64,000 nt of DNA. Source: an uncultured Clostridia bacterium. GTDB taxonomy: Bacteria; Bacillota; Clostridia; Oscillospirales; QAKW01. The translations under genes and the position numbers were made by a program. Under the pieces are notes generated by a model that was not told where the DNA came from, made no database searches, and was given only the letters and a program-made list of their open reading frames with translations. Below, one piece after another: positions 3,655 through 39,139 of this stretch. Where the stretch lies: assembly GCA_944385895.1 (NCBI GenBank), contig CALWYZ010000010.1, positions 1-64,000 of the forward strand. Reading direction: 5' to 3'. The stretch's first letter is position 1. Every line of letters begins with the position of its first letter.

Positions 3655-4596
3655 ATGGATTACAAAATGTCTGTTATCAGTACCACGACGGAGGGTATTG
3701 AGCATGTTTCTAATATATTGATTATCAATGGCATCTCGGGCTTTGAGATTTGTGACAGTAAGGATTTTCAAGAATTTCTTAATTCACGTATGCCGGCATA
3801 TGATTATGTTGACGATGAATTGATGAAGCTTTGCTCTCAACGTTGCTGTGTTAAGTTTTATACTGCTATAAATAATCAGGGCGACGAAATTATATCATCA
3901 GTTGAAAAATCCTTATTGCAGTTAAAACAGATGGATTGTGATAATACATTTGGAACATTGGAACTTAGTGTAACGATAGTCAATGACAGTGAATGGATAG
4001 ATAATTGGAAGAAATTTTATCATCCTATGGAAATAGGAAATAAACTGATTGTAACTCCGGCATGGGAGAATATTGAAACCGATAAAATACTTCTTAAAAT
4101 AGATCCGGGGATGGCATTCGGTACAGGCTCTCATGAAACAACAGCATTGTGTCTTGAACTAATTCAGCAGATTCAGCTTAAAGGTAAAAAACTTATGGAT
4201 GTAGGCTGTGGCAGCGGGATACTGTCTCAGGCCGCGGTACTTTTGGGCGCAGATTTTGCATATGGCTGCGACATTGATCAGGCTGCCGTGCGTGCCGCTA
4301 AGGCTAACGCAAAATTAAACGGCCTGGAAGATAAAACAGCTTACTATAAAGGTGACCTGCTGGAGTTTGCAAGAGAAAAATATGATATTGTGGTAGCAAA
4401 TATAGTTGCGGATATAATAAAAACGCTTGCAGGTGATATACATAAAGTTATGGAACAAGGCGGAATATTTATTGCATCTGGCATTATTTGTGAACGTGAA
4501 CAAGAAGTTGTTGACTGTATCAGAAATAACGGCTTTGATATTCTTGAAATAAAAGAAAGGCGGGGTTGGGCTGCTGTTCTTGCAGTCTTGAGATGA
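3655..4596 (+). CDS. prmA: Ribosomal protein L11 methyltransferase PrmA
   Basis: SAM-dependent methyltransferase that trimethylates lysines of ribosomal protein L11. The 313-aa length fits the family. Diagnostic features are DPGMAFGTGSHETT before the catalytic domain, the SAM-binding motif DVGCGSGILS (motif I), and VANIVADII (motif IV region, NxxA). The N-terminal third is the L11-binding domain. The AAGGA site upstream and the single-base gap to rsmE (stop 4594-4596, next ATG 4598) show a translationally coupled pair; prmA-rsmE is a common pairing in Firmicutes. Confidence 0.95.
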   Translation: MDYKMSVISTTTEGIEHVSNILIINGISGFEICDSKDFQEFLNSRMPAYDYVDDELMKLCSQRCCVKFYTAINNQGDEIISSVEKSLLQLKQMDCDNTFGTLELSVTIVNDSEWIDNWKKFYHPMEIGNKLIVTPAWENIETDKILLKIDPGMAFGTGSHETTALCLELIQQIQLKGKKLMDVGCGSGILSQAAVLLGADFAYGCDIDQAAVRAAKANAKLNGLEDKTAYYKGDLLEFAREKYDIVVANIVADIIKTLAGDIHKVMEQGGIFIASGIICEREQEVVDCIRNNGFDILEIKERRGWAAVLAVLR

Positions 4597-22204: not shown

Positions 22205-22291
22205 GCGGATATGGCGGAATTGGCAGACGCGCTAGATTCAGGTTCTAGTCGGGGCAACTCGGTGGAGGTTCAAGTCCTCTTATCCGCACCA
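22205..22291 (+). tRNA. tRNA-Leu (anticodon CAG), CCA encoded
   Basis: Acceptor stem GCGGATA pairs with TATCCGC, and the discriminator A plus CCA end is encoded (22288-22291). Anticodon stem CTAGA/TCTAG encloses loop TTCAGGT, so the anticodon is CAG. The long variable arm and the GGTTCAAGTCC T-arm are typical of a class II leucine tRNA. It marks the left edge of the accessory region; tRNA genes are common integration sites, but I found no second copy of its 3' end in the window. Confidence 0.96.
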
Positions 22292-22299
22292 AACAGTAC

Positions 22300-22350
22300 A
22301 AATCCGAACCCAATACCAATCGGTGAAGGGTTCGGGTTTGTTGTTTTCTT
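22300..22350 (+). terminator. tRNA-Leu terminator
   Basis: A 12-bp stem (22300-22311 with 22328-22339, one G-T pair) followed by a T-rich tail. Confidence 0.75.
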
Positions 22351-22376
22351 AAAAGATGTTAAATAAGTCTTTGTTT

Positions 22377-22411
22377 GTGGCAGTACAGAGTTTGTTGCTC
22401 TGTACTGCCAC
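22377..22411. repeat. 14-bp perfect hairpin before small membrane-protein gene
   Basis: Arms 22377-22390 and 22398-22411 with a 7-nt loop. Lacking a clean T-run, it is a weak terminator at best; it may be an RNA element of the downstream gene, which starts 42 nt later. Confidence 0.6.
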
Positions 22412-22452
22412 TTCTTCGTTTCAATGAATTTCGTACATAAAGGAGATTTGAA

Positions 22453-22617
22453 ATGAAGATTTTTAAAACAGTTGTTTTGATATTATTGATAGTAATAAAT
22501 TTACAGACTGTATATTACGCTTTATTATATAAAGCATCAACAGCAACAGGAGCTTTTCTTATATGTTTAGGTATTACCTTGTTTGTTGCAAGTGATGGTG
22601 GGATAAATCGACACTAA
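22453..22617 (+). CDS. Small membrane protein, 54 aa
   Basis: ATG at 22453 follows a textbook AAAGGAGATTT site. The peptide has two hydrophobic segments (about residues 4-24 and 31-46) separated by a short basic turn, so it should form a membrane hairpin. I recognise no family. It is bracketed by two perfect hairpins (22377-22411 and 22664-22703), so it appears to be a free-standing unit. The first gene of the accessory region after tRNA-Leu. Confidence 0.6.
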   Translation: MKIFKTVVLILLIVINLQTVYYALLYKASTATGAFLICLGITLFVASDGGINRH

Positions 22618-22663
22618 GAGTGATTATTCTAATAAAATTTTTATCTTTACAAATTGAAATCGA

Positions 22664-22703
22664 AATATAAAAGTGGCATCGTGCTTGATGCCACTTTTAT
22701 ATT
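22664..22703. terminator. 17-bp perfect bidirectional hairpin
   Basis: Arms 22664-22680 and 22687-22703, 6-nt loop, with A/T-rich outer stem. It lies between the small membrane-protein gene and the convergent OLD nuclease gene and can serve both. Confidence 0.8.
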
Positions 22704-22744
22704 ACAATACCATTTCCATTACATTGTGAGATATCCTCTCAAAA

Positions 22745-24439
22745 CTACACATCTAAAATTCTTTCTATCTGAGCACAAACATATTTTAGTTTTTCCAAAT
22801 AGCAATCAGGTAATATATCGTTCAAGTTATCTGTTTTTACGATCATATTAGTAATTTTCTCTTTTATTTCTGCTTCAGTCTTATCCCCAAAAGGCTTTGA
22901 TTGTGCATTGAATGATTTTTTCAACCTATCTGACCATTTGTATTTGCAACCCTTAAATTCTTTTACATCTAAATCAACACCATAGTCGTTATAAATTAAA
23001 TCTTTATAAAAGTCTTTCTTAAAAAAATCCTCAAACTCAGATTCCTTATTGTCGCCATATGCATATAAAATTGCGGAATTTTTTTCTTCAACAAGACCTT
23101 TTTGTTTCGCCTCTTCATACGAACTGATTCCACATTTATCGGCGTCAACTATTACAAAATATTTACACATCATAGAAGCATAAAGAGCACATTTATATTT
23201 GAGATTCGTTGCTCCTCCCATATCAGCAAAAGCGACTTTCTTGTTATTTATTGCATTTTTTACCTTTGTACTTAATTTAGAAAAAATATACTCCAAAGAA
23301 GTAGCATCATCAGAACCTTCGACTATAACAACGGTTTCCGATGATATAAGATTATCGGAAAGTTTTATTCCTAATAGTTCCCTTATTTCTTGTATATTAT
23401 TTGCTTTCCTGCCGATTCCGTTGTCAATAATAATATTTGAAGAAATATTCCCTCTGTTAACAAAAGAACCATTGTGTGTTGTGATAATAACTTGGCTCGT
23501 GTTAGATATTTGCTGAATTACACTATTGATCTGGTGTATTGCCTCAGGATGTAAATGTGACTCGGGTTCCTCTATTGCAATAATTCTAGAACCTGTTGCT
23601 TGTTTAGAACTATTTAGCAAAGCTAAGGTTATTAAACTTTTTACACCATCACCTTTATATGAAATATGTGTTTTGGAACCATCATTCACATAAAAATCAA
23701 TATTTCTTCTCAACATTCGTCTAGAGTCATCTATTAATTCTATTTCTGTTTCCTGAATATTTGGCAAAAATATCTTTATCATATCTGAAACGCGTAAATT
23801 GAGTTCGTTCATTAACTCTAATTGTTTCTTATGTACGGTAAGCATTGCTTGATTATATTCTTCATCATCAACTAAAATTTCCAATTCTTGGTTAACAAGT
23901 TCGTTCAATTTATTTAAAGTATCATCTTCTGTTCTAACAGCAGGTATATATTGAAAAACTATATTGTCAACCAAGAAAGAGATAATCTCACGTATTTTAT
24001 TTTTGTATGTTATAGCTCCCTTGCCGCGCTTTTCCAAAACATTAATTTCTATTGAATTTTGTTTGTTGTAAATAATTTCGATAGATAAATCGCCGTTATT
24101 AAATACTCCAACTTTTGAAACAAAGTCTTTGATTTCATCATCATTGAATTTAAATTTTAAAATAAGTTTAGTTGGAGAAAAACTTTTAGAGTCTTTTAAA
24201 ATTATAGGATAGTCTCTCTCATAATCATATTTATATTCTCTAAATTCTTTATAAAGTCTATAACTACGACTATCAGATACCATACTCTTCAATGTAACCA
24301 TCGCTAAATTTATTGCATTTAACACATTTGTTTTTCCTTCGTTATTTTTTCCTAAAATAATACAATAATTTTCTAAAGGAATACTTTTAACGGAAGTAAT
24401 GCTTCTGTAATTTTGTATTGAAATACTAGTTAATTTCAT
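22745..24439 (-). CDS. OLD-family ATPase-TOPRIM nuclease
   Basis: An ABC/SMC-like ATPase joined to a TOPRIM nuclease. Walker A GKNNEGKT is at residues 30-37; the Walker B and signature region EEPESHLHPEA is near residue 289; TOPRIM motifs are VVIVEGSDD (about 370-378) and the VDADKCG acid pair near 430. No UvrD-type helicase (GajB) or other known partner is adjacent, which fits a class 1 OLD protein rather than Gabija. OLD nucleases are frequent in anti-phage defence, and this one faces away from a Fic/R-M operon. Full length at 564 aa. RBS TAGGAGAAAA. Confidence 0.85.
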   Translation of the reverse strand: MKLTSISIQNYRSITSVKSIPLENYCIILGKNNEGKTNVLNAINLAMVTLKSMVSDSRSYRLYKEFREYKYDYERDYPIILKDSKSFSPTKLILKFKFNDDEIKDFVSKVGVFNNGDLSIEIIYNKQNSIEINVLEKRGKGAITYKNKIREIISFLVDNIVFQYIPAVRTEDDTLNKLNELVNQELEILVDDEEYNQAMLTVHKKQLELMNELNLRVSDMIKIFLPNIQETEIELIDDSRRMLRRNIDFYVNDGSKTHISYKGDGVKSLITLALLNSSKQATGSRIIAIEEPESHLHPEAIHQINSVIQQISNTSQVIITTHNGSFVNRGNISSNIIIDNGIGRKANNIQEIRELLGIKLSDNLISSETVVIVEGSDDATSLEYIFSKLSTKVKNAINNKKVAFADMGGATNLKYKCALYASMMCKYFVIVDADKCGISSYEEAKQKGLVEEKNSAILYAYGDNKESEFEDFFKKDFYKDLIYNDYGVDLDVKEFKGCKYKWSDRLKKSFNAQSKPFGDKTEAEIKEKITNMIVKTDNLNDILPDCYLEKLKYVCAQIERILDV

Positions 24440-24674
24440 TTTTTCTCCTATATATTGAAAAATCAGTTAAAACCTTAAAGGAAAACAACAAAATAAACGT
24501 AATTTTACTTATAAGGATAAATTTTACATAATTATAATATCACATTTTTCGACAAAATACAATTTATTAAATATACAAAAATAGAAGAACCTATAAAATC
24601 GGTTTTTTGCTCTAATGGGACTGTTTTTATAACCACGAATGTTCTAATGTTGCTCACAGGTATAATGTTTCCGT

Positions 24675-24729
24675 TATCGGCAAAAACATAAATAAACGTT
24701 ATTTTTGACTAATTGACATTTTGCCGATA
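24675..24729. promoter_or_regulatory. 11-bp inverted repeat overlapping the Fic promoter
   Basis: TATCGGCAAAA (24675-24685) and its exact complement TTTTGCCGATA (24719-24729). The right arm occupies most of the -35/-10 spacer of the Fic promoter and the left arm lies upstream, so a repressor bound to both would block transcription. The regulator is unknown; the Fic protein's own N-terminal helix-turn-helix is a candidate. Confidence 0.55.
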
Positions 24730-24741
24730 TTGTGATATACT
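24713..24741 (+). promoter_or_regulatory. Strong sigma-A promoter for the Fic/R-M operon
   Basis: Exact TTGACA (24713-24718), 17-nt spacer, TATACT (24736-24741). The Fic gene starts 28 nt later with GGAGG. No terminator is seen until 33,632, so it probably serves the genes up to 33,491. Confidence 0.8.
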
Positions 24742-24768
24742 ATTAACAGTAAATTTGGAGGTCTGTAT

Positions 24769-25665
24769 ATGAAATATTTATCCGTTAAAGAGGTTGCTTT
24801 ACTTTGGAATACATCCGAGCGTAGCGTTCGCAATTATTGTGCCGCAGGTCGTGTCCCTGGCGCTTTCCTTACAGGCAAAACATGGAACATACCCGAAAAT
24901 GCTGAGAAGCCCGAAAGGAGCAATAAAAGCAAACCGGCTCCGCAGACTTTGCTTGATATTTTAAAAGAGGAAAAGCGCAGTCAGACCCACGGCGGAATTT
25001 ATCATAAAATACAGATCGAGCTGACCTATAACTCCAACCACATCGAAGGCAGTCGTCTCACCCACGATCAGACACGCTATATCTTTGAAACCAATACCAT
25101 CGGCATAACTGATGAGGGCGTGCGTGTTGATGATATTATAGAAACTGCTACCCACTTCCGCTGTATCGATGAAATTATTGAAAGTGCAAAATCGCAGCTC
25201 AGCGAAAAATTTATTAAACATCTGCATTTCATCCTCAAGACCGGTACAAGCGATGCAAAAAAGGATTGGTTTGCTGTTGGCGATTATAAAAAACTGCCTA
25301 ACGAGGTTGGCGGTATGGAAACCACCCTACCCGAAGATGTGTCGGCTGAAATAAAAAAACTCCTTGCCGATTATAACAGCAAAGAAAATATAACACTTGA
25401 AGACATAATCGAGTTCCATGTGCAGTTTGAGCGCATCCACCCGTTCCAAGATGGTAACGGTCGTGTTGGTAGACTCATTATGTTTAAGGAATGCTTAAAA
25501 CACGGTATTGTACCGTTTATCATAGAAGATAAAATCAAAATGTTCTACTATCGCGGACTGAAGGAATGGAATCAGGACAAAGGTTATCTTACCGACACCT
25601 GCCTTTCTGCTCAGGATACGTTTAAAACTTATTTAGATTATTTTAGAATTCCTTATAAAAAGTAA
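24769..25665 (+). CDS. Fic-domain protein with N-terminal helix-turn-helix
   Basis: Probable protein AMPylase or other nucleotide transferase. The catalytic motif H224-PFQDGNGR is intact. An N-terminal inhibitory helix is present as S89-NHI-E93-G94, fitting the (S/T)xxxE(G/N) motif of class II Fic proteins, in which the Glu blocks ATP until released. Residues 1-48 form an excisionase-like helix-turn-helix (VKEVALLWNTSERSVRNYC), suggesting DNA binding and possibly self-regulation. First gene of a long operon with a 2TM protein and a type IIL R-M enzyme. Target unknown. Confidence 0.85.
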   Translation: MKYLSVKEVALLWNTSERSVRNYCAAGRVPGAFLTGKTWNIPENAEKPERSNKSKPAPQTLLDILKEEKRSQTHGGIYHKIQIELTYNSNHIEGSRLTHDQTRYIFETNTIGITDEGVRVDDIIETATHFRCIDEIIESAKSQLSEKFIKHLHFILKTGTSDAKKDWFAVGDYKKLPNEVGGMETTLPEDVSAEIKKLLADYNSKENITLEDIIEFHVQFERIHPFQDGNGRVGRLIMFKECLKHGIVPFIIEDKIKMFYYRGLKEWNQDKGYLTDTCLSAQDTFKTYLDYFRIPYKK

Positions 25666-25676
25666 TAGGAGAAAAT

Positions 25677-26621
25677 ATGAAAGCAAAAAAGTGGTTAACA
25701 ATTATAACGTTAGTTGTTACGTTAGTGGCGATGATAGTTGCGTTGTATGCGAAGTGCAAAAAGTGTGACCTCGCCTATGATTTTTCTATGGCAATTTTCG
25801 GCAGTGCCTTATTAGGGTTTATTATGTCACTAACTGAATATTTCACGGAACGTCGAAAGGCTATGGAAGATTTTTTAAGGGCATCATATAAGGTTTACTC
25901 AAAGTTAAGGAAAATCAAATATATTGACACTGATGAACCGCGCGACCTCATTATTGATTGCATCGCAGAAGAACAACGCAATGCTTATTGCTGTGGTTTA
26001 GAAGGCGAAACTGCAAAAGCGATGGGAATGATTGTCGATTATACAAAACGCGATGAGTATATCGCATGGATGGAAGCAAATGAGGTAATGTCATTTTCTG
26101 AAGATGATGACATCCAGGCCATATTGATTCAAATGTATAATCAACGTATTGAGGATTATAAAAAATTGTTTCTGTCCCGAATCGATATGTATTTGGAAAT
26201 TTCCAAGACAGATTTGGAAGATCTATCAAATGCTTATGGCAATTTGGATTTTCTTTTCGGTAATAAGACTATTCGACAAACAGCTTATGATTCCATTTAT
26301 CAAAAGTTACAGAATTGGCGCAACAAACTGTTAAGCGAATCGTACCATTTCGGTTTATTAAAAGAAGGTAAAGGAAATTTTGCCATATGTGTTCGTAAAC
26401 TGTTTGAACTAAATGATATGTTTTTTGAAGCCAAATCCGAACACACAAAAAGTGAAATTCATACAGTTGTATACCAGCATTTGTTTGATGATATGTCGGA
26501 TAGAATAGAGGAGTTTCGTTGTTCAACATATTTTAAAAAAGATGTTACATACGAAAAAAAGATTCCCATATTATCGAAGATCAAAAGAAAAAATACTTCG
26601 GCAACAAATGAGGGAGCCTAA
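25677..26621 (+). CDS. Two-TM membrane protein of unknown function in R-M operon
   Basis: Two membrane helices (about residues 7-25 and 36-54) form an N-terminal hairpin; the remaining 260 residues are charged, mostly helical and cytoplasmic by the positive-inside rule (YFTERRKAM after helix 2). I do not recognise the soluble part. It lies 11 nt after fic and 14 nt before the R-M gene, so all three are one operon. The shape resembles membrane effectors of some defence systems, but that is inference only. Confidence 0.6.
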   Translation: MKAKKWLTIITLVVTLVAMIVALYAKCKKCDLAYDFSMAIFGSALLGFIMSLTEYFTERRKAMEDFLRASYKVYSKLRKIKYIDTDEPRDLIIDCIAEEQRNAYCCGLEGETAKAMGMIVDYTKRDEYIAWMEANEVMSFSEDDDIQAILIQMYNQRIEDYKKLFLSRIDMYLEISKTDLEDLSNAYGNLDFLFGNKTIRQTAYDSIYQKLQNWRNKLLSESYHFGLLKEGKGNFAICVRKLFELNDMFFEAKSEHTKSEIHTVVYQHLFDDMSDRIEEFRCSTYFKKDVTYEKKIPILSKIKRKNTSATNEGA

Positions 26622-26635
26622 CATAGGAGGATAAT

Positions 26636-29398
26636 ATGAAAGATACAGAACGACGAGCAGCGGCGAAAGCCTTTGCTGAATATTGGAAAGACAGAGGATA
26701 TGAAAAGGGCGAAAGCCAACCGTTTTGGCTCTCGCTACTTCGTGATGTCTTGGGCGTAGAAGCACCCGAAAAGTTTATTACCTTTGAGGAACAGGTGCGC
26801 CTTGACCACACAAGCTTTATTGACGGATTTATTCCGGCAACTCATGTGCTTATTGAGCAGAAAGGTCGTAATAAAGATCTACGTAAGCCTATTAAACAGT
26901 CAGACGGAACATTACTCACCCCGTTCCAACAGGCACAGCGTTATTCTGCTGTTCTTCCGTATTCACAGCGCCCTCGCTGGATCATCACCTGCAATTTTGA
27001 GGAATTTCTTGTTTATGATATGGAAAAGCCTAATGGTGAGCCGGAGCAGATTTTTGTAAAAGACCTTGCTAAAGAGTATTATCGACTTATGTTCCTTGTG
27101 GATACCGGCGATGATAATATTCGTCGTGAAATGGAGGTTTCCATTCAGGCAGGTAACTTGGTCGGCATACTGTATGATGAAATCTTAAAACAGTATCACG
27201 ACCCCGAAAATGAGGAATCTCTTAAAAGCCTTAACAAACTCATCGTTCGCCTTGTTTTCTGTCTCTATGCAGAAGATGCCGGTATATTCGGCGGACATTC
27301 CAAATTCCATAATTATATTAAGTCTTTCTCTGCCCGTGATATGCGAAAGGCTTTGATTGAGCTTTTCAAAATTCTTGATACAAAGCCCGATGAACGCGAT
27401 CCGTATGAGGACGAGCAGCTGAGCTCCTTCCCGTATGTAAACGGTGGATTGTTTTCGGATGAAAATATTGAGATTCCGCAAATGAACGATGAAATCCGTG
27501 ATTTACTTCTCCGTAATGCGAGCGAGGATTTCGACTGGAGTGACATCAGCCCCACCATCTTTGGTGCCGTATTTGAAAGCACATTGAATCCTGAAACACG
27601 CCGTAGCGGTGGTATGCACTATACCTCTATCGAAAACATACATAAAGTTATTGACCCGCTGTTCCTTGATGAATTGCGTGAAGAATTGGAAGAAATTAAA
27701 GCGATTAAGGTTGCTAAGACAAGAGAAAGCAAAATTAATGACTTTCGTGAAAAACTCGGTAGCCTTACCTTTTTTGATCCTGCTTGTGGTTCGGGCAACT
27801 TCTTAACCGAAACCTATATTTCTCTGCGTCGTTTGGAGAACGAAGCGATTGAGGTTATTACACAAGGACAGATGCTCCTTGATTTTACCGGTATTATCAA
27901 AGTATCCATCGGTCAATTTTATGGTATTGAAATCAACGATTTTGCCGTTACAGTTGCTAAAACTGCCCTTTGGATTGCCGAAAGCCAAATGATGAAAGAA
28001 ACAGAGGTTATTGCACACATTAACCTTGATTTTCTGCCGCTCAAATCCTATGCCAACATCGTAGAAGGAAACGCCCTCCGTACCGATTGGAAAACTGTTG
28101 TGCCGAAGGACAAGCTCAATTATATAATGGGTAATCCGCCTTTTGTGGGGGCTCGCCTTATGACCAAAGAACAAAAGGATGATGTTGTCTCTGTTTTCGG
28201 CGTCAAGTGGAAAAATGCGGGTAATCTTGACTATGTTTCTTGTTGGTACAAAAAAGCTACTGATTTAATGGAGGGTACAAATATCCGTACCGCCTTGGTA
28301 TCAACAAACTCAGTTTCACAAGGCGAAAGCGTTGCAATTCTGTGGAAACCTCTTTTTGAAGATGGTGTGCATATTGATTTTGCTCACCGCACATTCCGTT
28401 GGGATAGCGAAGCAAGTATTAAGGCTCACGTGCATTGTGTTATTATCGGCTTTAGCATTGCTCCGTTTTATAAATCTAAAGTCATATTTTCTGCAGAGCG
28501 ACCTTTAATAGTAGATAACATTAATGCGTATTTAATAGATGCACCAGATGTCTTTATCGAAAGTGTGAAAAAAACTGTTTGTGATGTCCCTCAACTTGTG
28601 TTTGGCAGCATGCCTAATGATAATGGCTTTTTGAGTAATTATTCTCAAGAAGAGCGAGATGCAATTGTAGCAGAATATCCCGAATCTGAAATAGTGTTCA
28701 AACAATTTGTTGGTGCAACGGAATTTATTAACAATAAGATTCGTTGGTGTATGTGGTTAAAAGGAGTATCTCCAAACATTATTCGTAACACACCTCCTAT
28801 TGCAAAAGCAGTTGCATCTGTAAAAGAAATGCGTGAACAAAGCAATCGTGAAGCAACAAAGAAGTTGGCAGAAACCCCAACTCTTTTTGGAGAAATACGA
28901 CAACCTAGCGCGGATTATATTGTTATTCCTCGAGTCTCCTCTGAAAGAAGAAAATATATTCCTATTGGCTTTTTGAATGCCGATTATATCGCTTCCGATG
29001 CAGTTCAAATCTTACCGGATGCAAATATGTTTCACTTTGGAGTTCTGACCTCCAATGTGCATATGGCTTGGATGAGGGCTGTTTGCGGTAGATTGAAAAG
29101 CGATTACAGATATTCTGTAAATATCGTTTATAACAATTTCCCCTGGCCGACTCCTACCGATGAACAAAAGGCAGCCATTGAAAAAACTGCGCAGGCAATT
29201 CTTGATGCTCGCGCCCTCTATCCCGATTGTTCACTTGCCGATCTCTATGACGAGGTTGCTATGCCACCCGAACTACGCAAGGCTCACCAAGCCAACGACC
29301 GCGCCGTGATGCAGGCGTATGGCTTTGATGTGAAGACTATGACGGAAAGCAGTTGTGTAGCAGAACTTATGAAGATGTATCAGGAGTTAACGAAGTAA
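26636..29398 (+). CDS. MmeI-like type IIL restriction-modification enzyme
   Basis: Single polypeptide with nuclease and DNA methyltransferase. The N-terminal nuclease site is D63-x10-E74-Q-K76, a PD-(D/E)xK pattern close to that of MmeI. The methyltransferase has SAM motif D381-PACGSGNF and catalytic N500-PPF, which indicates adenine-N6 methylation. A helical spacer lies between, and a target-recognition domain plus C-terminal domain follow (about 620-920). At 920 aa it matches MmeI/YeeA proteins. Such enzymes cut at a fixed distance from their site and methylate one strand. The recognition sequence cannot be read from the protein here. Start ATG has AGGAGG. Confidence 0.88.
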   Translation: MKDTERRAAAKAFAEYWKDRGYEKGESQPFWLSLLRDVLGVEAPEKFITFEEQVRLDHTSFIDGFIPATHVLIEQKGRNKDLRKPIKQSDGTLLTPFQQAQRYSAVLPYSQRPRWIITCNFEEFLVYDMEKPNGEPEQIFVKDLAKEYYRLMFLVDTGDDNIRREMEVSIQAGNLVGILYDEILKQYHDPENEESLKSLNKLIVRLVFCLYAEDAGIFGGHSKFHNYIKSFSARDMRKALIELFKILDTKPDERDPYEDEQLSSFPYVNGGLFSDENIEIPQMNDEIRDLLLRNASEDFDWSDISPTIFGAVFESTLNPETRRSGGMHYTSIENIHKVIDPLFLDELREELEEIKAIKVAKTRESKINDFREKLGSLTFFDPACGSGNFLTETYISLRRLENEAIEVITQGQMLLDFTGIIKVSIGQFYGIEINDFAVTVAKTALWIAESQMMKETEVIAHINLDFLPLKSYANIVEGNALRTDWKTVVPKDKLNYIMGNPPFVGARLMTKEQKDDVVSVFGVKWKNAGNLDYVSCWYKKATDLMEGTNIRTALVSTNSVSQGESVAILWKPLFEDGVHIDFAHRTFRWDSEASIKAHVHCVIIGFSIAPFYKSKVIFSAERPLIVDNINAYLIDAPDVFIESVKKTVCDVPQLVFGSMPNDNGFLSNYSQEERDAIVAEYPESEIVFKQFVGATEFINNKIRWCMWLKGVSPNIIRNTPPIAKAVASVKEMREQSNREATKKLAETPTLFGEIRQPSADYIVIPRVSSERRKYIPIGFLNADYIASDAVQILPDANMFHFGVLTSNVHMAWMRAVCGRLKSDYRYSVNIVYNNFPWPTPTDEQKAAIEKTAQAILDARALYPDCSLADLYDEVAMPPELRKAHQANDRAVMQAYGFDVKTMTESSCVAELMKMYQELTK

Positions 29399-29456
29399 TT
29401 GATGCTAATTCAGATATCGTAAGAAAATTATATGTATTAAAACAGGAGTGAAATCG

Positions 29457-30791
29457 ATGTCGCAAACTGTATACGGAAACTTAGAATTGCATGGTAAAAT
29501 CTTCCCGTTTTTACTTGATGGACATTATGTACATATAGTTCAGCAAGCATTTCAAAATTCCGAGGAATTCATAGAAAAAGATTATTCATCTCTACGAGGA
29601 GTTACATCGGATAATCGCGATATTTTGTTTATAAATTGTCACCTCATTTCAACAGTATTTGATGCTAAAACAATTTTTTCGATTCAGGGCTATGCCATTT
29701 CTGTTGGAAATGTTGGAGAACCTTGTGACTTTTCTTTTGACAGAATGACTTTTTACTCCGAGGCAATAAATACATTTTACTCTCCTCAAAACGCAATTGA
29801 CAAACAGTCAAGTGATCTTGGCTTTTTGGCTGAAGAGTGGAACGGTGCAATGTCTATTGTCTTAAAACCATTTGAGGAAACAAGCATTGCATTTAACTTT
29901 GACGAAGTGACCATTTGCGAATTGAATATAGCGAGATATATCAATATAAAAGATGGTACAGAAAAAATAGGAGATTTAATAACCAGTTTTTCTTATTGCT
30001 TTTCAAATAAACGAATGCCTAACGACATATGCACGTTTTATCTTTATTTATATGATTTTTTGTCATTTGTAAACTATAACAAAAACATTCCTTTTGAGAA
30101 AATTCTTCTTGAAACGAAAGATTTTACAGGCAAATTTTCGCAAGTTGCAAAGGTATTTATTTTTACCAATGCATCTTCATATGACGGAAACACCAGGAAT
30201 ACCATTATTGCCGATGATTTGCCAAAAGAAAAACTTGGATTAATTTTCAAAAAGGTATCTTCCCTTAGAAATAATGATAAAAGGCTATCTCTTTACTATC
30301 CCCCTAACTTTCACGAAAGAAATGTAACAGATCCCAGTAAGTGGTTATCTTTGGCTTTATGTTTTGAGGGGCTCTTTACCGAAATCAATCCTAATTTTAA
30401 GGAAAAAGAAAATGTCAATTTTAAGAATGTCAAATCACTAATTCAAAATACTGCTCAATCAATAGATAAGACAAAGTTAGCAAAAAAGGAGAAAAAATAT
30501 TTTTCGGACTTTGAAAAACACATTGATAGATATGAGGGACTTTTGGAAGAAAAATTCAACTTTGTTTTAAAAAATAATTCAAAAATCCTTAAAACATCCT
30601 CTAACCAAAACTATGGAAAAATTTATGCTGATTATAGAAACAAATTGGCACATGGCACGATAGATCCTTTAGGGGATAATGAAATTGAGGTATACAGATT
30701 ACTAAGAGCGATGATATATATTCTCTTGTTGAATGATATTAAATTAGATGAAAAAATTCTTTCAAAGATTATAAAAAAAGTATTTTTATAA
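29457..30791 (+). CDS. ApeA-like HEPN-domain protein
   Basis: 444-aa protein whose C-terminal region holds the HEPN RNase motif R-x4-H as R394-NKLA-H399 (DYRNKLAHG), with the His-Gly typical of Apea-like HEPN domains. The N-terminal 300 residues are beta-rich and resemble the ApeA N-terminal domain. ApeA is an abortive-infection RNase, so an anti-phage role is likely. The start is ATG 29457, 8 nt after GGAG; an in-frame GTG at 29448 overlaps that site and is rejected. 58 nt after the R-M gene. Confidence 0.7.
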   Translation: MSQTVYGNLELHGKIFPFLLDGHYVHIVQQAFQNSEEFIEKDYSSLRGVTSDNRDILFINCHLISTVFDAKTIFSIQGYAISVGNVGEPCDFSFDRMTFYSEAINTFYSPQNAIDKQSSDLGFLAEEWNGAMSIVLKPFEETSIAFNFDEVTICELNIARYINIKDGTEKIGDLITSFSYCFSNKRMPNDICTFYLYLYDFLSFVNYNKNIPFEKILLETKDFTGKFSQVAKVFIFTNASSYDGNTRNTIIADDLPKEKLGLIFKKVSSLRNNDKRLSLYYPPNFHERNVTDPSKWLSLALCFEGLFTEINPNFKEKENVNFKNVKSLIQNTAQSIDKTKLAKKEKKYFSDFEKHIDRYEGLLEEKFNFVLKNNSKILKTSSNQNYGKIYADYRNKLAHGTIDPLGDNEIEVYRLLRAMIYILLLNDIKLDEKILSKIIKKVFL

Positions 30792-33491: not shown

Positions 33492-33631
33492 TATTTAAGA
33501 TTTTTGATAAGTATCAGGAAGATGGGGTTTTACCGTCAACCGTTAGTTATAATGTTTGAGGATTGAAATAAATCATATCGTAATTAATGTTTTCTTGAAA
33601 GTCGAAATTAACCTTATTTACATTTATTCCA

Positions 33632-33664
33632 AAGAGTCGCGGTGTCGCGGCTCTTAATTTTTTG
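33632..33664 (+). terminator. Terminator ending the accessory operon
   Basis: A 10-bp stem (33632-33641 with 33646-33655, one G-T pair) and GTGT loop, followed by a T-run. It comes just before the small XRE gene. Confidence 0.8.
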
Positions 33665-33682
33665 TGTAAAAGAGGTTTTTGT

Positions 33683-33916
33683 ATGTTAGACAGAACAGAG
33701 TATGAAAATTATTGGTACGCTTTCCAACAAAAGTTGGACAAAATCTTGGATGAGCGTAATATGACCTACCGAGGACTAAGCATTGAACTTGGTAAATCGC
33801 CGGGATATATTCACGACGTTCTCAGCCGAAGAATTGATCCGTCTACTATATCTTTGTTTGAAATGGCAGCATATTTTGGCTGCTCAATATGGGATTTTTT
33901 AAATATTACCAAGTAA
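33683..33916 (+). CDS. Small XRE-type helix-turn-helix protein, 77 aa
   Basis: Helix-turn-helix of the Cro/C1 kind: MTYRGLSIELGKSPGYIHDVLSRR, then an IDPSTISLFEMAAYF helix. Starts at ATG 33683 with AGAGG 7 nt upstream; a TTG at 33662 is rejected because it sits within the terminator tail. It could be a regulator of the region, as it directly precedes the noncoding block. Confidence 0.7.
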   Translation: MLDRTEYENYWYAFQQKLDKILDERNMTYRGLSIELGKSPGYIHDVLSRRIDPSTISLFEMAAYFGCSIWDFLNITK

Positions 33917-34011
33917 AAGTTGAGGGATGTTGTTTGTCAAACAACACATTGGGCAAATCTATTGACGATAGAGAATCCGCGTGTTAAACTGATTATGTTA
34001 TATTTGAAATA

Positions 34012-34157
34012 AAGCAGGAGTGTATTCAAAAGATAACGAAAATTGCAATGTTCCGAAAGGGTTAATTGCGCTTGTTTGTTATGCTTTGCTCCTGCGCATA
34101 GGGCAAAGGTAAAAGGACTGCAAGTTAGCACTTACCTTTCGAGGTAGGTGCTTTTTT
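34012..34157 (+). ncRNA. Candidate small RNA ending in a strong terminator
   Basis: No gene is seen here, but GCAGGAG near 34014 pairs with CTCCTGC near 34090, ATAAC/GTTAT and TTGCAAT/ATTGC pair inside it, and the stretch ends in an intrinsic terminator (34127-34157). This is the shape of an independent RNA of roughly 145 nt. The 5' end and promoter are unsure, and it could instead be the 3' UTR of the XRE gene. Confidence 0.4.
34127..34157 (+). terminator. Strong intrinsic terminator
   Basis: An 11-bp stem (34127-34137 with 34142-34152, one G-T), TTCG tetraloop, six Ts. It separates the small RNA from the large structured region. Confidence 0.85.
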
Positions 34158-34224
34158 GTTATCTTTTTGCCTTCTTTTTATGTTTTGTTCTCCGGTAAGT
34201 GACGGGTTAAAAGTAATCGCATAA

Positions 34225-35340
34225 AAGAAGGTGGTTTAAAATGATTGTATTTGATGTGGGAAGTCATTTGCGCCAATGCATTGTTGCCTTGGTGCCGATT
34301 CCTGTAGTCTGAGTTCTGCGACAGGCTGTAAATCACTAGCAGAAAACCTTTAAAGTCGGGTTAGACTTTATCAGACGATGCTCTAAGGCTGATTATCCGT
34401 AGGACCAACATATTAGGAAATACGGAACTAAAGAGCTATCACGGTTACGGCAGCGGACAGGGTGATATATAGAAGATAGGCGACACATTTTTAATCGACC
34501 TATTACTTTGCTCGGTTTTATGATTTTCCGCAATAAATCAGAACCCACTTTCACGCGGTGGTCCGAAATATGATAGTAGGAAAAGCCGTGATATGCATAG
34601 CTCTTCACAAAGGCAATGTGAATTAAAGGTTATCAGCATAGGGCGTGTCAACCTATAGTGCGGATAGCAGAGCCGTGACGAAACGGAAATTGTTCGACTG
34701 CGAACCTGCGCACACGGCAGACCGGACGGTACAGTGTGACAAAACCACTTTTGCACAGTGGGCGAAAATGTGAAGTGCAATATACAGATTTGCTTTCACT
34801 TGTGGCAATCTGTGAACGAAAATAAGTGCATAACGAGGGTTTGGGTTCGACCTAAGTTATTGACGAAAATTTATGGAATCCACGACGTTTGAGAGTTTAA
34901 GTCGGTAAATAAAACTGCTCAAGCGGTGGTGCTACCGTCCTTTATGGGAATGGCATACGAAGTTTCCGGGATTTAATCGTTGTTAAAAACAGAATGAAAA
35001 TCCCCGCCGAACGAGTGTTTAGTCTCGGCCGGGCTGAAATGCCTTGCACTCGGCGTAGCGTCAGTAAATAATACAAGGTTATTTACACTCTTGAATATCA
35101 AGAGAACACGCACGGAAAATCTATTAATCTTGCGTTAAAGTGTAAATAGATTAAGCCAAGTACTAACCTTATTTTACAGCAGAATATCGCACAAACAACT
35201 TTCGCTTCGGGATGATTTATGACTGTCTCTTCGAGAGCCGAGATTAGCAGGGCATAATACCCCGCGTCAATAAAGAATCAGTAAGAAATGTAGGTACGCA
35301 CACACCTTTGACAGTGGGTGTATTATGCCCTGCGGACTTT
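34225..35340 (+). ncRNA. Candidate large structured noncoding RNA (about 1.1 kb)
   Basis: No convincing gene on either strand; in 34,621-34,740 the G+C by hand count is 63/120, well above the AT-rich spacers. Complementary segments are dense: 34,431-34,439 with 34,597-34,605 stacked on 34,440-34,444 with 34,586-34,590; 34,784-34,790 with 34,807-34,813; 35,013-35,017 with 35,047-35,051 plus 35,005-35,008 with 35,052-35,055; 35,064-35,071 with 35,079-35,086; 35,088-35,094 with 35,098-35,104; 35,118-35,125 with 35,145-35,152; and 14 perfect pairs 35,247-35,260 with 35,320-35,333. Size, setting next to an integrase and nested helices recall giant RNAs such as GOLLD and ROOL, but I cannot confirm a family. 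Group II intron domain V was not found. Ends are approximate. Confidence 0.55.
34241..34312 (+). CDS. Possible 23-codon leader peptide
   Basis: ATG 34241 to TGA 34312, preceded by AAGAAGGTGG. The peptide (MIVFDVGSHLRQCIVALV...) is hydrophobic. It lies at the 5' side of the structured region and could be a leader peptide, a truncated gene start or chance. Confidence 0.25.
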   Translation: MIVFDVGSHLRQCIVALVPIPVV

Positions 35341-35346
35341 CCTTTT

Positions 35347-35420
35347 AAGAGCCATATAGGGCAATTATAGATTAATATTAGATTGCATTTAACAATGACT
35401 TTAATTTATATATGGCTCTT
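35347..35420. repeat. 12-bp perfect inverted repeat
   Basis: AAGAGCCATATA (35347-35358) and TATATGGCTCTT (35409-35420) enclose 50 AT-rich bases. It follows the last stem of the structured region; no T-run follows, so it is not a standard terminator. It may be the 3' limit of the RNA or a DNA site. Confidence 0.6.
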
Positions 35421-35439
35421 GTATGATTGATGCTTGTCT

Positions 35440-35681
35440 TTTCGATATGCTTGATGATTATAATTTCGATATGATATTTTGAAATTACTATCATTCCCTA
35501 AAAAAGGATTGTGCTGACCGTCCTTTCGAGATTACTTACTTTTCGATATCAGGTCAGCACAATCTGCTGAAAGATTTTTTATGATTCCCGTTTCGAAATG
35601 ATATATGACTTTCATTTCGAAATGAGCAATGAGTTCCTATTTTCATTTTGAAATGCTTTATGACTGTCATTTCGAAATGAG
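35440..35681. repeat. Array of about 36-nt repeats with TTTCGAWATG ends, upstream of integrase
   Basis: Three full units at 35440-35475, 35591-35626 and 35646-35681, plus a shorter variant at 35524-35550. Each unit carries the 10-mer TTTCGAWATG (or a close variant) at both ends with starts 24 nt apart (17 in the short unit). The last two units match at 32 of 36 positions by eye; the first matches the last at 28 of 36. The 10-mer contains the palindrome TTTCGAAA. Position between the RNA candidate and the integrase suggests binding sites for the recombinase, a directionality factor or an initiator. Confidence 0.65.
35507..35564. repeat. 13-bp perfect inverted repeat enclosing two array motifs
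   Basis: GATTGTGCTGACC (35507-35519) and GGTCAGCACAATC (35552-35564). The 32-nt loop holds the short repeat unit (TTTCGAGATT and TTTCGATATC). It could extrude as a cruciform or fold as single-stranded DNA. Confidence 0.7.
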
Positions 35682-35734
35682 GGGGCAAAATTTTCGTACA
35701 CAAAATTATTTTCGTCAGGAGAACCCCGAATATT

Positions 35735-35748
35735 TTATTGACGAAAAT
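35735..35748. repeat. 14-nt repeat TTATTGACGAAAAT, three copies
   Basis: Exact copies at 34857-34870 and 35735-35748, and a 13/14 copy at 37245-37258. An inverted partial copy (ATTTTCGTCA) is at 35709-35718. The second and third copies flank the integrase module. Confidence 0.5.
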
Positions 35749-35783
35749 ACTGTATTTTTTACTATTTTCGTACACAGTTTTTT

Positions 35784-35811
35784 ACGCAAGGCTTGGTCCC
35801 TATCCTTGCGT
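35784..35811 (+). terminator. Hairpin just before the integrase gene
   Basis: An 8-bp perfect stem (ACGCAAGG 35784-35791 with CCTTGCGT 35804-35811), followed by A/T-rich sequence and the integrase RBS. Could be a weak terminator or leader hairpin. Confidence 0.45.
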
Positions 35812-35847
35812 TGAAATAAAATTTTTAGAGAAAGGAGACGGTTTGCT

Positions 35848-36801
35848 ATGTCAGATTCTAATAATATTACAGTGTTAAACCCAGGCTTGTATAAGAACTT
35901 ACTTGCTCAAGTCGAGTCTATCTATAGGCACAGCAACGAGCTTAGTTTTAAAACAAGAGCAAGGTATTATGAAGCGACAAAAAGGTTCTGTAAGTTCTTA
36001 GCCGATAATTTTCGTTTACAAAACTTTAAGAACGTGGAAGACCGACACTTTAAAGCATATGTGGAGCATCTAAAAGAAAACAACTCTGCTGCAACTATTC
36101 AATCCGATCTGTCGGGCATACGGTATTTCCATAGAAAATCCGGTAGTAAAAACAGGCTATCCCCTAATAGCAAGTTAAATCTGCCCAAACGCGCGACGGG
36201 TGTAAAAGACCATTCGCTATTAGATAAAGAGCTTGTCAATATTCGACAGTGGGCTATCCAAACAGGTCGGCAGGATGCGGTAATTGCGATAGACTTTGCC
36301 TGTGAATTTGGTTTGCGACTTGAAGAGATCTGTACCCTAAGAGTTGAATACCTTATGTCTGCCTTAAAGGCCGGACAACTTGTCATAAAAGGCAAAGGCG
36401 GTCAGACAAGGGCCATTGATTTAAGCGCAAATCAACGCAGTATCATTACCGATAATTTGAACTATGCCAGGTGTTCAGGCAAATATCCAAGAGATTATTT
36501 AATCTCAGGTAGCGAAAAGGGCGGCGTACAGCGGGAAAAACGTTCTTTGCAGAATTGGATGAGTTATAACAGAAAATACTTTATGGTAGAAAACCGTGAG
36601 GATTTGAGTGAAGACGGTAAAAAGAAAAGAACGGAAACAATCTCTTGGCACAGTCTGAGACATACCTATGCACAACGCACCTATGAAGAAGCATTAAAAG
36701 AGCGCCCAAAGAAAGCTCGGAAGATTGTTAGCGAAAACTTAGGTCACCACAGGACCGAAGTGACAAGAATTTACTTGGCTGATAAGCCGAAGAAAAAGTA
36801 A
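35848..36801 (+). CDS. Tyrosine recombinase / integrase
   Basis: Site-specific recombinase with all catalytic residues: R157 (GLRLEEIC), K183 (KGKGGQTR), H268 and R271 (WHSLRHTYA), H300 (LGHHRTEV) and Y309 (RIYL). The first 110 residues form a SAM-like core-binding domain. At 317 aa it is full length and likely active. RBS AGAAAGGAGACGG. The repeat array lies immediately upstream. No phage structural, conjugation or replication genes are seen nearby, so what it moves is unclear. Confidence 0.92.
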   Translation: MSDSNNITVLNPGLYKNLLAQVESIYRHSNELSFKTRARYYEATKRFCKFLADNFRLQNFKNVEDRHFKAYVEHLKENNSAATIQSDLSGIRYFHRKSGSKNRLSPNSKLNLPKRATGVKDHSLLDKELVNIRQWAIQTGRQDAVIAIDFACEFGLRLEEICTLRVEYLMSALKAGQLVIKGKGGQTRAIDLSANQRSIITDNLNYARCSGKYPRDYLISGSEKGGVQREKRSLQNWMSYNRKYFMVENREDLSEDGKKKRTETISWHSLRHTYAQRTYEEALKERPKKARKIVSENLGHHRTEVTRIYLADKPKKK

Positions 36802-37037
36802 GCTATTAATTAAAATGATGAAGGAAGAATTTAAATTGACGACAATGTCCTGCTGACTAAACTGACAGGATTGATATATAGGGACAAACAAAGGAAATAA
36901 AGGTCGGGCGATTCAAAAGCCCGAAGTATATGGCGGCGGCAACCTGCCACCGCCTGTAAGGAGAATTTATATGTTATATGTTTCTATGCTTGCCTCCGGC
37001 GGAAAAGGAGGTAATGATATTTAAGGAGGTGTAGCTC
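36802..37037 (+). other. Integrase 3' spacer with hairpins and a 17-codon frame
   Basis: Holds short hairpins (TCGGGC/GCCCGA at 36,904-36,924; GGCGG/CCGCC at 36,932-36,954) and a tiny frame from ATG 36971 to TAA 37024 with an AAGGAG site, whose end overlaps the RBS of the next gene. The tiny frame may couple translation to that gene. No other gene seen. Confidence 0.35.
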
Positions 37038-37344: not shown

Positions 37345-37386
37345 ATGAATATTGTAGGAGAAAGACTAAAAGAACTCAGGTTTTAG
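37345..37386 (+). pseudogene. First 12 codons of an XRE-type repressor, truncated
   Basis: Behind GGAGG and a good promoter, the frame reads MNIVGERLKELR, a typical XRE repressor start, then Phe and a stop. The homologous sequence ends at about 37380, where a truncated gene from the other strand begins. Confidence 0.6.
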
Positions 37387-37606: not shown

Positions 37607-39139
37607 TCAGTAAAAATAGACAGGAGAATGAAAAAAGTTTATAAAAAGAAAAATCCAAACCCGACAAAGTCGAATTTGGATTTTTGGTGCACCTGAGCAT
37701 TCTATAATCGAACCGTTTACCTCTTTTAGAGTGATGGTTTTGCTTGCTTCCTTGTAATTAAATGTTATGACCAATTTGTCATCGTAAAGATATACGGCGT
37801 TTACAAAAATGTCAATCAGTCTTTGTTTGTGTTCCTTCGTTTCCAAGCTCATGCTCTGAATATGCCTGAGCCATAATACTAAGCCCTCTTTCGTGATTGT
37901 GGGCTTTTTCTTCTCTTCCTTGATGAGCTTTAATTTAATCTCATCTCTTGTCTGCTCCAACTCTATCATTCTTTGTTTTGTGGTTGGAGTTATAATTCCT
38001 TCTTCTATTGCTCTAAGCAAATTGTTAAGTGCGTTCTCTGTTTCACTAAGCCGTTGTTTAAGTAGTTGTATTGCGGGATTTTCTTTCTTTGCATTTCTGA
38101 ACACAATACCTGCGATATCCTCAATAACATTATCATCAATCATCATCTCATGGGTGTGTTTAACAACAATGTCTTCAATCCATTCTTTTTTAACCGTCTT
38201 TTTATCACAAGTGTGTTTGTACTTAGCGTTATTGCATTTGTAATATCGGTGAACTGTACCGTTTCGTGCGGTTCCGCTTTCACCGGTCATATATACACCG
38301 CATTTACCGCAAAACAGTTTTGTTGTCAGTAAGTAATCATCTTCGGCTTTATGCCGCGCTGTTGCTCTCTTATTCTTCGCACGCTCACGTTGCACCTTGT
38401 CGAATAACGCCTGCGGGACTATCCTTGATATACCGTCTTTATTAACAATATCTCGGAACTTGTATTCACCAATATACCGTCGGTTTTTCAGCATATCCGT
38501 TACAATATTAATGGTTATTTTAGTTCCGTGGGAAGTGGTAACACCTTTTGCATTTAGCATTTCCACAATCTCTTTTATTGTTTTACCATCCGCGTATGCT
38601 TGGAAAGCAGCAACCACATACGGTGCTTTAACAGGATCCACCTCAAACATTTGGTCCTTGTTAATAACATAGCCGATAGGGACTGTACCGCCATTAAATT
38701 TACATTTTAGCGCATTCTCGGTCATACCTCGTGTAACTTTTTCGGAAAGTTCAACCGAATAGTATTCTGCATAACCCTCTAACATTGATTCAAGCAATAT
38801 GCCTTCAGCGTTTTGGGATATTGTTTCCGTCGCAGAAACCACTTTAACATTATTCTTTTTTAATGTGTTTTTATAACGAGCCGAATCGTAACGGTTACGG
38901 GCAAATCTGTCGAGTTTCCAAACGATAACCAGATCGAATTTCTGCTTATCGCTATCCTTAATCATCTGTTGGAACGCCGGTCGATTGTCTGTCTTTGCCG
39001 ATAACGCTCGGTCAATATAGGTATCAATAATTGAAATTCCTTGCTTTTCGGCAAAAGCGTAACATCCTCGAAGCTGACCGTCTATACTTTCTTTGCGTTG
39101 ACTGTCCGAGGAATATCTTGCGTAAATAACTCCAATCAT
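37607..39139 (-). CDS. Large serine recombinase
   Basis: Site-specific recombinase with an N-terminal resolvase domain (YARYSSDSQ, catalytic Ser10), a Recombinase domain, a zinc ribbon (FCGKCGVYMTGE...CNN...C) and a long coiled-coil region (about 355-420). Such enzymes integrate and excise prophages and transposons without host factors. Its ATG overlaps the stop of the XRE remnant by 4 nt. The last 30 or so codons run through a perfect terminator hairpin (37,649-37,685), so the C-terminal tail (RLCRVWIFLFINFF...) may be foreign to the original protein. Confidence 0.88.
   Translation of the reverse strand: MIGVIYARYSSDSQRKESIDGQLRGCYAFAEKQGISIIDTYIDRALSAKTDNRPAFQQMIKDSDKQKFDLVIVWKLDRFARNRYDSARYKNTLKKNNVKVVSATETISQNAEGILLESMLEGYAEYYSVELSEKVTRGMTENALKCKFNGGTVPIGYVINKDQMFEVDPVKAPYVVAAFQAYADGKTIKEIVEMLNAKGVTTSHGTKITINIVTDMLKNRRYIGEYKFRDIVNKDGISRIVPQALFDKVQRERAKNKRATARHKAEDDYLLTTKLFCGKCGVYMTGESGTARNGTVHRYYKCNNAKYKHTCDKKTVKKEWIEDIVVKHTHEMMIDDNVIEDIAGIVFRNAKKENPAIQLLKQRLSETENALNNLLRAIEEGIITPTTKQRMIELEQTRDEIKLKLIKEEKKKPTITKEGLVLWLRHIQSMSLETKEHKQRLIDIFVNAVYLYDDKLVITFNYKEASKTITLKEVNGSIIECSGAPKIQIRLCRVWIFLFINFFHSPVYFY
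37649..37685 (-). terminator. Terminator hairpin inside the 3' end of the serine recombinase frame
   Basis: An 11-bp perfect stem (37649-37659 with 37675-37685) with an inner CGAC/GTCG stem; on the minus strand a T-rich tail follows. An 8-bp palindrome GGTGCACC (37686-37693) abuts it. Confidence 0.65.

What the first reader, a model, noticed from the sequence alone, without database searches (positions are those of the whole stretch)
34225..35340. Candidate giant structured noncoding RNA in a mobile island
About 1.1 kb without a gene, locally about 52% G+C in an AT-rich setting, with at least nine separate complementary pairs of 5-14 bp, several of them long-range (34,431/34,605; 35,247/35,333). 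Stems and positions are seen directly. Size, nested helices and closeness to an integrase recall GOLLD and ROOL RNAs, but I cannot place it in a family, so it may be new. A leader-like 23-codon frame lies at its 5' side.
Basis: partly seen in the sequence, partly recalled or inferred. Interest (0 to 1): 0.8.

Follow-up and report, generated by a model that had tools for sequence, protein, structure and literature searches.

The report
Giant RNA paired with a recombinase
This stretch is part of a previously uncatalogued, very large folded RNA (about 1.5-2 kb) that gut Clostridia carry in mobile DNA islands, almost always directly upstream of one kind of DNA-recombining enzyme, which suggests that RNA and enzyme work together.

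Summary
The finding is real and larger than reported. Window 34225-35340 is the core of a structured noncoding transcript that probably runs from a promoter near 33962 to about 35580-35690: attenuator-like leader, SD-like start, a folded core of about 1 kb, and a tail of hairpin modules separated by 24-nt repeats. No Rfam family matches. I found about 20 homologues in herbivore-gut Oscillospirales, plus more distant ones. Covariance models trained only on the near set find core or tail modules upstream of tyrosine recombinases 33-44% identical to the window's (E down to 3e-10, correct strand) and nothing in control loci. Covariation is strong: core 98.5% of cells paired with 39 two-sided changes, against 89.9% and 10 in shuffles (0/500); module B 22 against 5 (0/500). 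Indels break reading frame. In 17 of 18 untruncated loci with the downstream side assembled, a XerC-like tyrosine recombinase follows; in distant loci a terminator-type hairpin separates RNA from gene, so the RNA is probably trans-acting, not a leader. Function is inferred: most likely a partner of the recombinase. Corrections: G+C is 43%, not 52%; one of two named stems fails; the 23-codon frame is not conserved.

The parts
33662..33916 (+). small XRE/Cro-type helix-turn-helix gene (~80 aa), conserved upstream of the RNA in 9 loci
   Evidence: Pfam HTH_3/HTH_26 just under cutoff; conserved neighbour
33962..33990 (+). promoter-like site of the RNA, TTGACG-17-TAAACT
   Evidence: perfect TTGACA-17-TATAAT at the same place in L089, L082, L091
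34028..34167 (+). leader hairpin domain with terminator-type hairpin 34127-34152 (attenuator-like); outer stem AAAAGATAAC/GTTATCTTTT is replaced by other pairs in L013
34225..34243 (+). SD-like sequence (AAGAAGGTGG) with ATG; SD-like part conserved in 21 of 22 copies, frame not conserved
34225..35200 (+). folded core of the RNA
   Evidence: alignments and consensus folds
34880..34897 (+). invariant core segment CCACGACGTTTGAGAGTT, used to fetch homologues
34960..35064 (+). central domain modelled as R1; found by covariance model in L135, L137, L138
35064..35104 (+). two hairpins, GTAAATAATACAAGGTTATTTAC and CTCTTGAATATCAAGAG, with compensatory changes across copies
35118..35152 (+). stem AATCTATT/AATAGATT, replaced by other pairs in type II
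35230..35241 (+). junction where modules A and B are missing in the window compared with L013, L079, L089 and others (deletion)
35246..35333 (+). tail module C, long hairpin with conserved loop AGAATCAGTAAGAAA; modelled with B as R2
35347..35420 (+). tail module D, hairpin AAGAGCCATATA/TATATGGCTCTT
35440..35680 (+). tail repeats of about 24 nt (ATGACTGTCATTTCGAAATGATAT type; sites at 35440, 35464, 35591, 35615, 35646, 35670)
35507..35580 (+). tail module F, hairpin GATTGTGCTGACC/GGTCAGCACAATC followed by a T run; possible 3' end of the RNA
35690..35771 (+). ATTTTCGT/ACGAAAAT motifs and promoter-like site 35738-35765 of the recombinase gene
35848..36801 (+). XerC/IntI-like tyrosine recombinase, constant neighbour of the RNA, catalytic residues intact

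Best explanation
The stretch is the core of a new class of giant structured noncoding RNA, about 1.5-2 kb, transcribed from its own promoter through an attenuator-like leader. It has a folded core and a tail of hairpin modules separated by 24-nt repeats, and ends before the promoter of an adjacent XerC-like tyrosine recombinase. Shown here: conservation, covariation on the + strand, modular anatomy, and genetic coupling to the recombinase across proteins only 33-44% identical to the window's. Inferred: that it is transcribed, that it acts in trans, and that it works with the recombinase as a ribonucleoprotein or architectural partner which controls or directs the recombinase's DNA rearrangements in the mobile island. 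I put about 0.95 on 'conserved structured RNA', 0.8 on 'RNA separate from the recombinase mRNA', and 0.45 on 'direct functional partner of the recombinase'.
For: No Rfam match. About 20 homologues. Consensus-fold z -6.8 to -9.4; + strand better than - strand. Core domain 98.5% of cells paired and 39 two-sided changes vs 89.9 +/- 0.7% and 10.3 +/- 3.2. Module B 22 vs 5.2 +/- 1.8. Models built only from near copies hit upstream of diverged recombinases: R1 in L137 1.1e-8, L138 1.3e-8, L135 1.2e-3; R2 in L137, L117, L138, L135, L134 at 3e-10 to 1.5e-6 with no hit in six control recombinase loci. Terminator-type hairpin between RNA and recombinase in L135 and L138, seen by eye in L137, L117, L134. 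Recombinase next to the RNA in 17 of 18 assessable loci.
Against: No transcript, binding or activity data. One recombinase of the family (L136) lacks the RNA, and one RNA (L015, truncated) lacks the recombinase. Linkage could reflect travelling together in islands. Homologues are few and mostly from MAGs.
Confidence: 0.6

Rival explanations
1. Ornate RNA particle of the GOLLD/ROOL sort: the RNA folds and multimerises on its own for the benefit of the mobile element, and the recombinase is merely its usual neighbour.
For: Size, ornate fold, mobile setting, rumen and herbivore-gut origin. GOLLD and ROOL form RNA-only cages (PMC12286853).
Against: GOLLD and ROOL lie in phages and prophages near tRNA islands; this RNA has no phage copy and is tied to one recombinase family over deep divergence.
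Confidence: 0.25
2. Folded single-stranded DNA rather than RNA: the hairpin modules are integron attC-like or replication/transfer sites that the recombinase acts on as ssDNA.
For: The recombinase model's best structural match is an integron integrase (PDB 2a3v), though Xer, Cre and lambda Int follow closely. Hairpins are flanked by repeats. Modules can be lost (window lacks A+B; L095 lacks all).
Against: Sigma70-type promoters and terminator-type hairpins bound the unit; an SD-like start; a large conserved core that no cassette array has; fixed module order and no gene cassettes; close copies of the repeat occur only at this locus in the genome.
Confidence: 0.12
3. A very long 5' leader that regulates the recombinase in cis.
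For: Same strand, directly upstream; attenuator-like leader; hairpin before the recombinase start codon.
Against: Terminator-type hairpin plus separate promoter-like site before the recombinase; an opposite-strand gene lies in between in L014 and L082.
Confidence: 0.08
4. Decayed protein gene or unrecognised small ORFs.
For: SD plus ATG at the 5' edge; overlapping antisense ORFs of 60-190 aa in some copies.
Against: Frame-breaking indels throughout, strong conservation with covariation, and the ORFs vary in start, end and length.
Confidence: 0.02

Closest known systems
GOLLD and ROOL RNAs
   Same: Giant ornate noncoding RNAs carried by mobile elements of Gram-positive and rumen bacteria, function unknown (PMC12286853)
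   Different: No sequence/structure match in Rfam; longer and modular with a repeat tail; not in phages; constant tyrosine recombinase neighbour
OLE RNA
   Same: Ornate large RNA of Gram-positive anaerobes and extremophiles that works in a ribonucleoprotein (PMC9723947)
   Different: About 600 nt; no Rfam match; different genomic setting
Integron (IntI and attC sites)
   Same: XerC/IntI-like recombinase beside an array of hairpins separated by repeats; nearest fold is IntI on folded DNA
   Different: No gene cassettes, fixed module order, large folded core RNA, promoters and terminator-type hairpins around the unit
STAXI motif
   Same: Structured motif repeated in tandem near XerDC-type integrases, possibly ssDNA (PMC2864571)
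   Different: STAXI is a small pseudoknot repeat of enterobacteria; no match here
HEARO/omega RNA and IS110 bridge RNA (from own knowledge)
   Same: Noncoding RNA encoded next to the enzyme of a mobile element and working with it
   Different: Those are short guides for nuclease or DEDD enzymes; here a giant RNA beside a tyrosine recombinase, and guiding is not shown

Membership tests
GOLLD / ROOL / OLE (Rfam) | match to the family covariance model | tested here: not met
   no hit at gathering score, and none to these families at E up to 10 in 33500-35900; none in 14 homologous or related loci
GOLLD / ROOL / OLE (Rfam) | homo-oligomeric particle | not testable with these tools
   needs cryo-EM or mass photometry
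Group I / group II intron | intron core in Rfam, reverse transcriptase or homing endonuclease, flanking exons | tested here: not met
   no Rfam hit; no such ORF in the unit
Integron | gene cassettes separated by attC sites, variable order | tested here: not met
   module order constant, no genes between modules
Integron | recombinase acts on folded ssDNA hairpins | not testable with these tools
   fold similarity only
STAXI motif | Rfam match | tested here: not met
Conserved structured RNA | covariation beyond chance in homologues | tested here: met
Conserved structured RNA | a stable transcript from this strand | not testable with these tools
   no expression data held
Cis-regulatory leader of the recombinase | co-transcription with the downstream gene | tested here: inconclusive
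   terminator-type hairpins and separate promoter-like sites argue against; no transcript data

The most novel reading that the evidence does not exclude
A tyrosine recombinase that works with a dedicated giant RNA: the 1.5-2 kb RNA forms a ribonucleoprotein with the XerC-like enzyme and scaffolds, licenses or guides its DNA recombination, a pairing not described for tyrosine recombinases in anything I found.
Probability: 0.35. Interest if true: 0.95.

Novelty: new variant of a known kind. Interest (0 to 1): 0.8.

Why it matters
Few bacterial RNAs other than rRNA reach this size with conserved structure, and the roles of GOLLD and ROOL are unknown. This class has what they lack: a constant protein neighbour that co-occurs over deep divergence. 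That makes the question of what giant ornate RNAs do for mobile elements testable with one protein-RNA pair. If the recombinase needs the RNA, it would be an unexpected RNA-dependent form of a very well studied enzyme family.

Tried and rejected
Rfam in gathering and relaxed modes: nothing; the FinP hits in L135/L138 are the terminator-type hairpin before the recombinase. Phage and plasmid collections by DNA and by recombinase protein: no RNA homologue; plasmid recombinases at 35% identity or less. Viral contigs: 55 hits to a loose pattern were chance (nhmmer); the exact pattern and the recombinases gave none. Class-wide recombinase search at E 1e-45: none (no positive control in that sample, so absence is weak evidence). 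Hits in Bacteroidales L080 and Verrucomicrobia L097 are chance (not found by nhmmer). Base-pairing between RNA and element ends in L086: nothing longer than 10 nt. Shared operator between RNA and recombinase promoters: CATTTTCGTCA in L014 (4/300 shuffles) and ATTTTCGTCA in L083 (22/300), nothing convincing in L135, and the script then stopped with an error, so this is not claimed. My recollection of a separate 'xerDC' RNA motif could not be confirmed; the paper found describes STAXI. Shuffling cassettes: rejected because module order is fixed. Alignment A7 mixes both strands of the palindromic module B and was not used for pair counts.

Full report
WHAT WAS CLAIMED AND WHAT IS THERE. The stretch has no gene, and its + strand folds more stably than dinucleotide shuffles (z -4.3; the 35100-35599 window z -6.1). 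G+C is 43%, not 52%. Of the two stems named, 35247/35333 is real and conserved. The outer half of 34431/34605 carries a mismatch in the other type I copies. The 23-codon frame is not conserved, although the SD-like sequence before it is (21 of 22 copies).

HOMOLOGUES. Whole-genome searches in the same order found copies in G245, G181 and G314, plus truncated tails in G008 and G093. One exact pattern from the invariant core, scanned against 84,980 species genomes, brought about 19 true copies, nearly all in ruminant and other herbivore-gut Clostridia/Oscillospiraceae MAGs; a few records bear other labels (L082, L083, L087, L098) and some of these may be mis-binned. They fall into type I (window-like) and type II, about 70-75% alike where alignable. 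About 1-2% of genomes sampled in the order carry it (8 of 394; 3 of 246). No phage, plasmid or viral-contig copy was found.

STRUCTURE AND STRAND. Consensus folds beat column-shuffled alignments by z -6.8 (A4), -9.4 (A3) and -6.9 (A2). The + strand gives clearly lower consensus energies than the - strand in all three. RNAalifold found two-sided compensatory changes in 20 of 125 pairs (A3) and 13 of 165 (A2). On a 23-sequence alignment of the central domain, 98.5% of cells pair (shuffles 89.9 +/- 0.7), with 39 two-sided changes (10.3 +/- 3.2) and 0 of 500 shuffles as high; sliding the partners by 1-3 columns drops pairing to 36-50%. That alignment was fitted to the model, which leans towards the structure, but the helices were predicted from the near set alone. 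Indels are mostly not multiples of three, so it is not a protein gene.

FULL ANATOMY. The near copies share a layout: a small XRE-type gene (9 loci); a sigma70-type promoter, perfect TTGACA-17-TATAAT in L089, L082 and L091, TTGACG-17-TAAACT at 33962-33990 in the window; a leader whose sequence varies but which recurrently holds a terminator-type hairpin; an SD-like start; the core; and then a tail. The tail alternates a ~24-nt repeat (AUGACUGUCAUUUCGAAAUGAUAU) with hairpin modules A, B, C and others in constant order. The window lacks modules A and B, apparently by deletion at 35230-35241. In this genome close copies of the repeat occur only here.

DEEP CONSERVATION WITH A TYROSINE RECOMBINASE. 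Downstream lies a XerC/IntI-like recombinase with a complete active site (AlphaFold2 model pLDDT 89, nearest folds IntI, XerA, XerH, Cre and lambda Int). Searching the order with the most diverged copy found further family members, and their upstream DNA was read. Five loci (L117, L134, L135, L137, L138), whose proteins are 33-44% identical to the window's, have the same kind of long noncoding region. A covariance model from near-set cores alone finds it in L137 (1.1e-8), L138 (1.3e-8) and L135 (1.2e-3), and a model from near-set tail modules B+C finds it in L137, L117, L138, L135 and L134 (3e-10 to 1.5e-6), all on the coding strand upstream of the recombinase, with nothing in L136 and L139-L143. 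In L117 much of the module B stem is replaced by other pairs while the loop GGAC..GUCA stays. Across 10 subfamily representatives this module has 22 two-sided changes against 5.2 +/- 1.8 in shuffles. L117 shares its 5' half with type I but has a different 3' half, so the RNA is mosaic.

TRANSCRIPTION UNIT. In L135 and L138 a 13-bp G+C-rich hairpin with a U run stands between tail and recombinase, and similar ones are seen by eye in L137, L117 and L134. The recombinase has its own promoter-like site (L135: TTGACA-17-TATATT; window 35738-35765). In L014 and L082 an opposite-strand gene lies between them. The RNA is therefore probably a separate, trans-acting product. Counting loci whose downstream side is assembled, 17 of 18 have the recombinase or its remnant next; the exception is L015, whose RNA is cut short. 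Conversely, 5 of 6 family members with E <= 1e-45 and at least 1 kb of upstream sequence have the RNA (with 67, 82, 88); the exception is L136.

MOBILE CONTEXT. The RNA-recombinase pair is not itself the integration module. In G880 it lies inside an 18.95-kb element bounded by 23-bp direct repeats at tRNA-Gln (G880:C3 70078 and 89028), next to a separate xis and Tn916-type integrase. In the window and L085 a CcrB-like serine recombinase lies in the corresponding place. G880 has three copies of the tyrosine recombinase. So the pair travels as cargo or as an accessory control module.

MECHANISM. Shown: a conserved structured RNA of the + strand, modular, linked to a recombinase family. Inferred: it is transcribed, acts in trans, and works with the recombinase. 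I favour an RNA-protein or architectural role in which core and repeated tail elements bind the recombinase, and perhaps the XRE protein, and control its DNA transactions. The repeats look like multiple binding sites, but this is inference. A GOLLD/ROOL-like particle, an ssDNA/integron-like array and a cis leader are the rivals, in that order.

KNOWN OR NEW. No Rfam 15 family matches, and the open literature searched does not describe it. That search covers only open-licence papers, so absence is not proof. It works most like a giant ornate RNA of a mobile element, but it is not a member of GOLLD, ROOL or OLE.

Noticed in passing
L141:3900-5380 and the matching part of L142: Another long noncoding stretch with strong predicted folding (z -8.0) upstream of a more distant tyrosine recombinase (34% identical to the window's), with GGTAAGCAG repeats; two genomes 92% alike show 2 compensatory, 27 one-sided and 0 broken pairs. 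Possibly a second class of the same kind.
   Followed up: partly
window 37607-39139 (-) and 37345-37386: CcrB-like serine recombinase lies inverted compared with L085, and the XRE gene that precedes it in L085 is cut short in the window, suggesting an inversion or insertion.
   Followed up: partly
window 36971-37024; same in L081, L083, L085, L086: Conserved mini-frame (M..NLPASGRNGGNEI type) after the tyrosine recombinase, following another SD-like, structured leader (GGGACTGATATATA); precedes xis/int or the serine recombinase operon.
   Followed up: no
L014:3107-4180 (-), L082 (opposite-strand gene before the recombinase), L136 upstream of the recombinase: An XRE-HTH plus TPR gene is inserted on the opposite strand between RNA tail and recombinase, flanked by ATTTTCGT motifs; in L136 the RNA is gone.
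   Followed up: partly
window 22205-30791: Island next to tRNA-Leu with defence-like genes: AAA ATPase weakly like MAD3/PtuA, Fic, MmeI-type restriction-modification, Apea-like HEPN.
   Followed up: no
G880 contig C3, 70078-89050 (L118, L086, L119): 18.95-kb integrative element at tRNA-Gln with 23-bp direct repeats, very large surface-protein genes, and the RNA-recombinase pair at its integrase end; no conjugation genes seen in the parts read.
   Followed up: partly
L081 and L086 leaders (L086 about 4145-4300): The RNA leader of these copies holds an arginine-rich frame of about 53 codons (MTNEKCRSKRRCLPSLLQG...) before the terminator-type hairpin.
   Followed up: no
L015, L016, L017; L082 recombinase; L095: Decayed copies: RNA or tail truncated and fused to serine recombinase C-terminal fragments; an in-frame stop in the L082 tyrosine recombinase; L095 lacks all tail modules and most of its recombinase.
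   Followed up: partly
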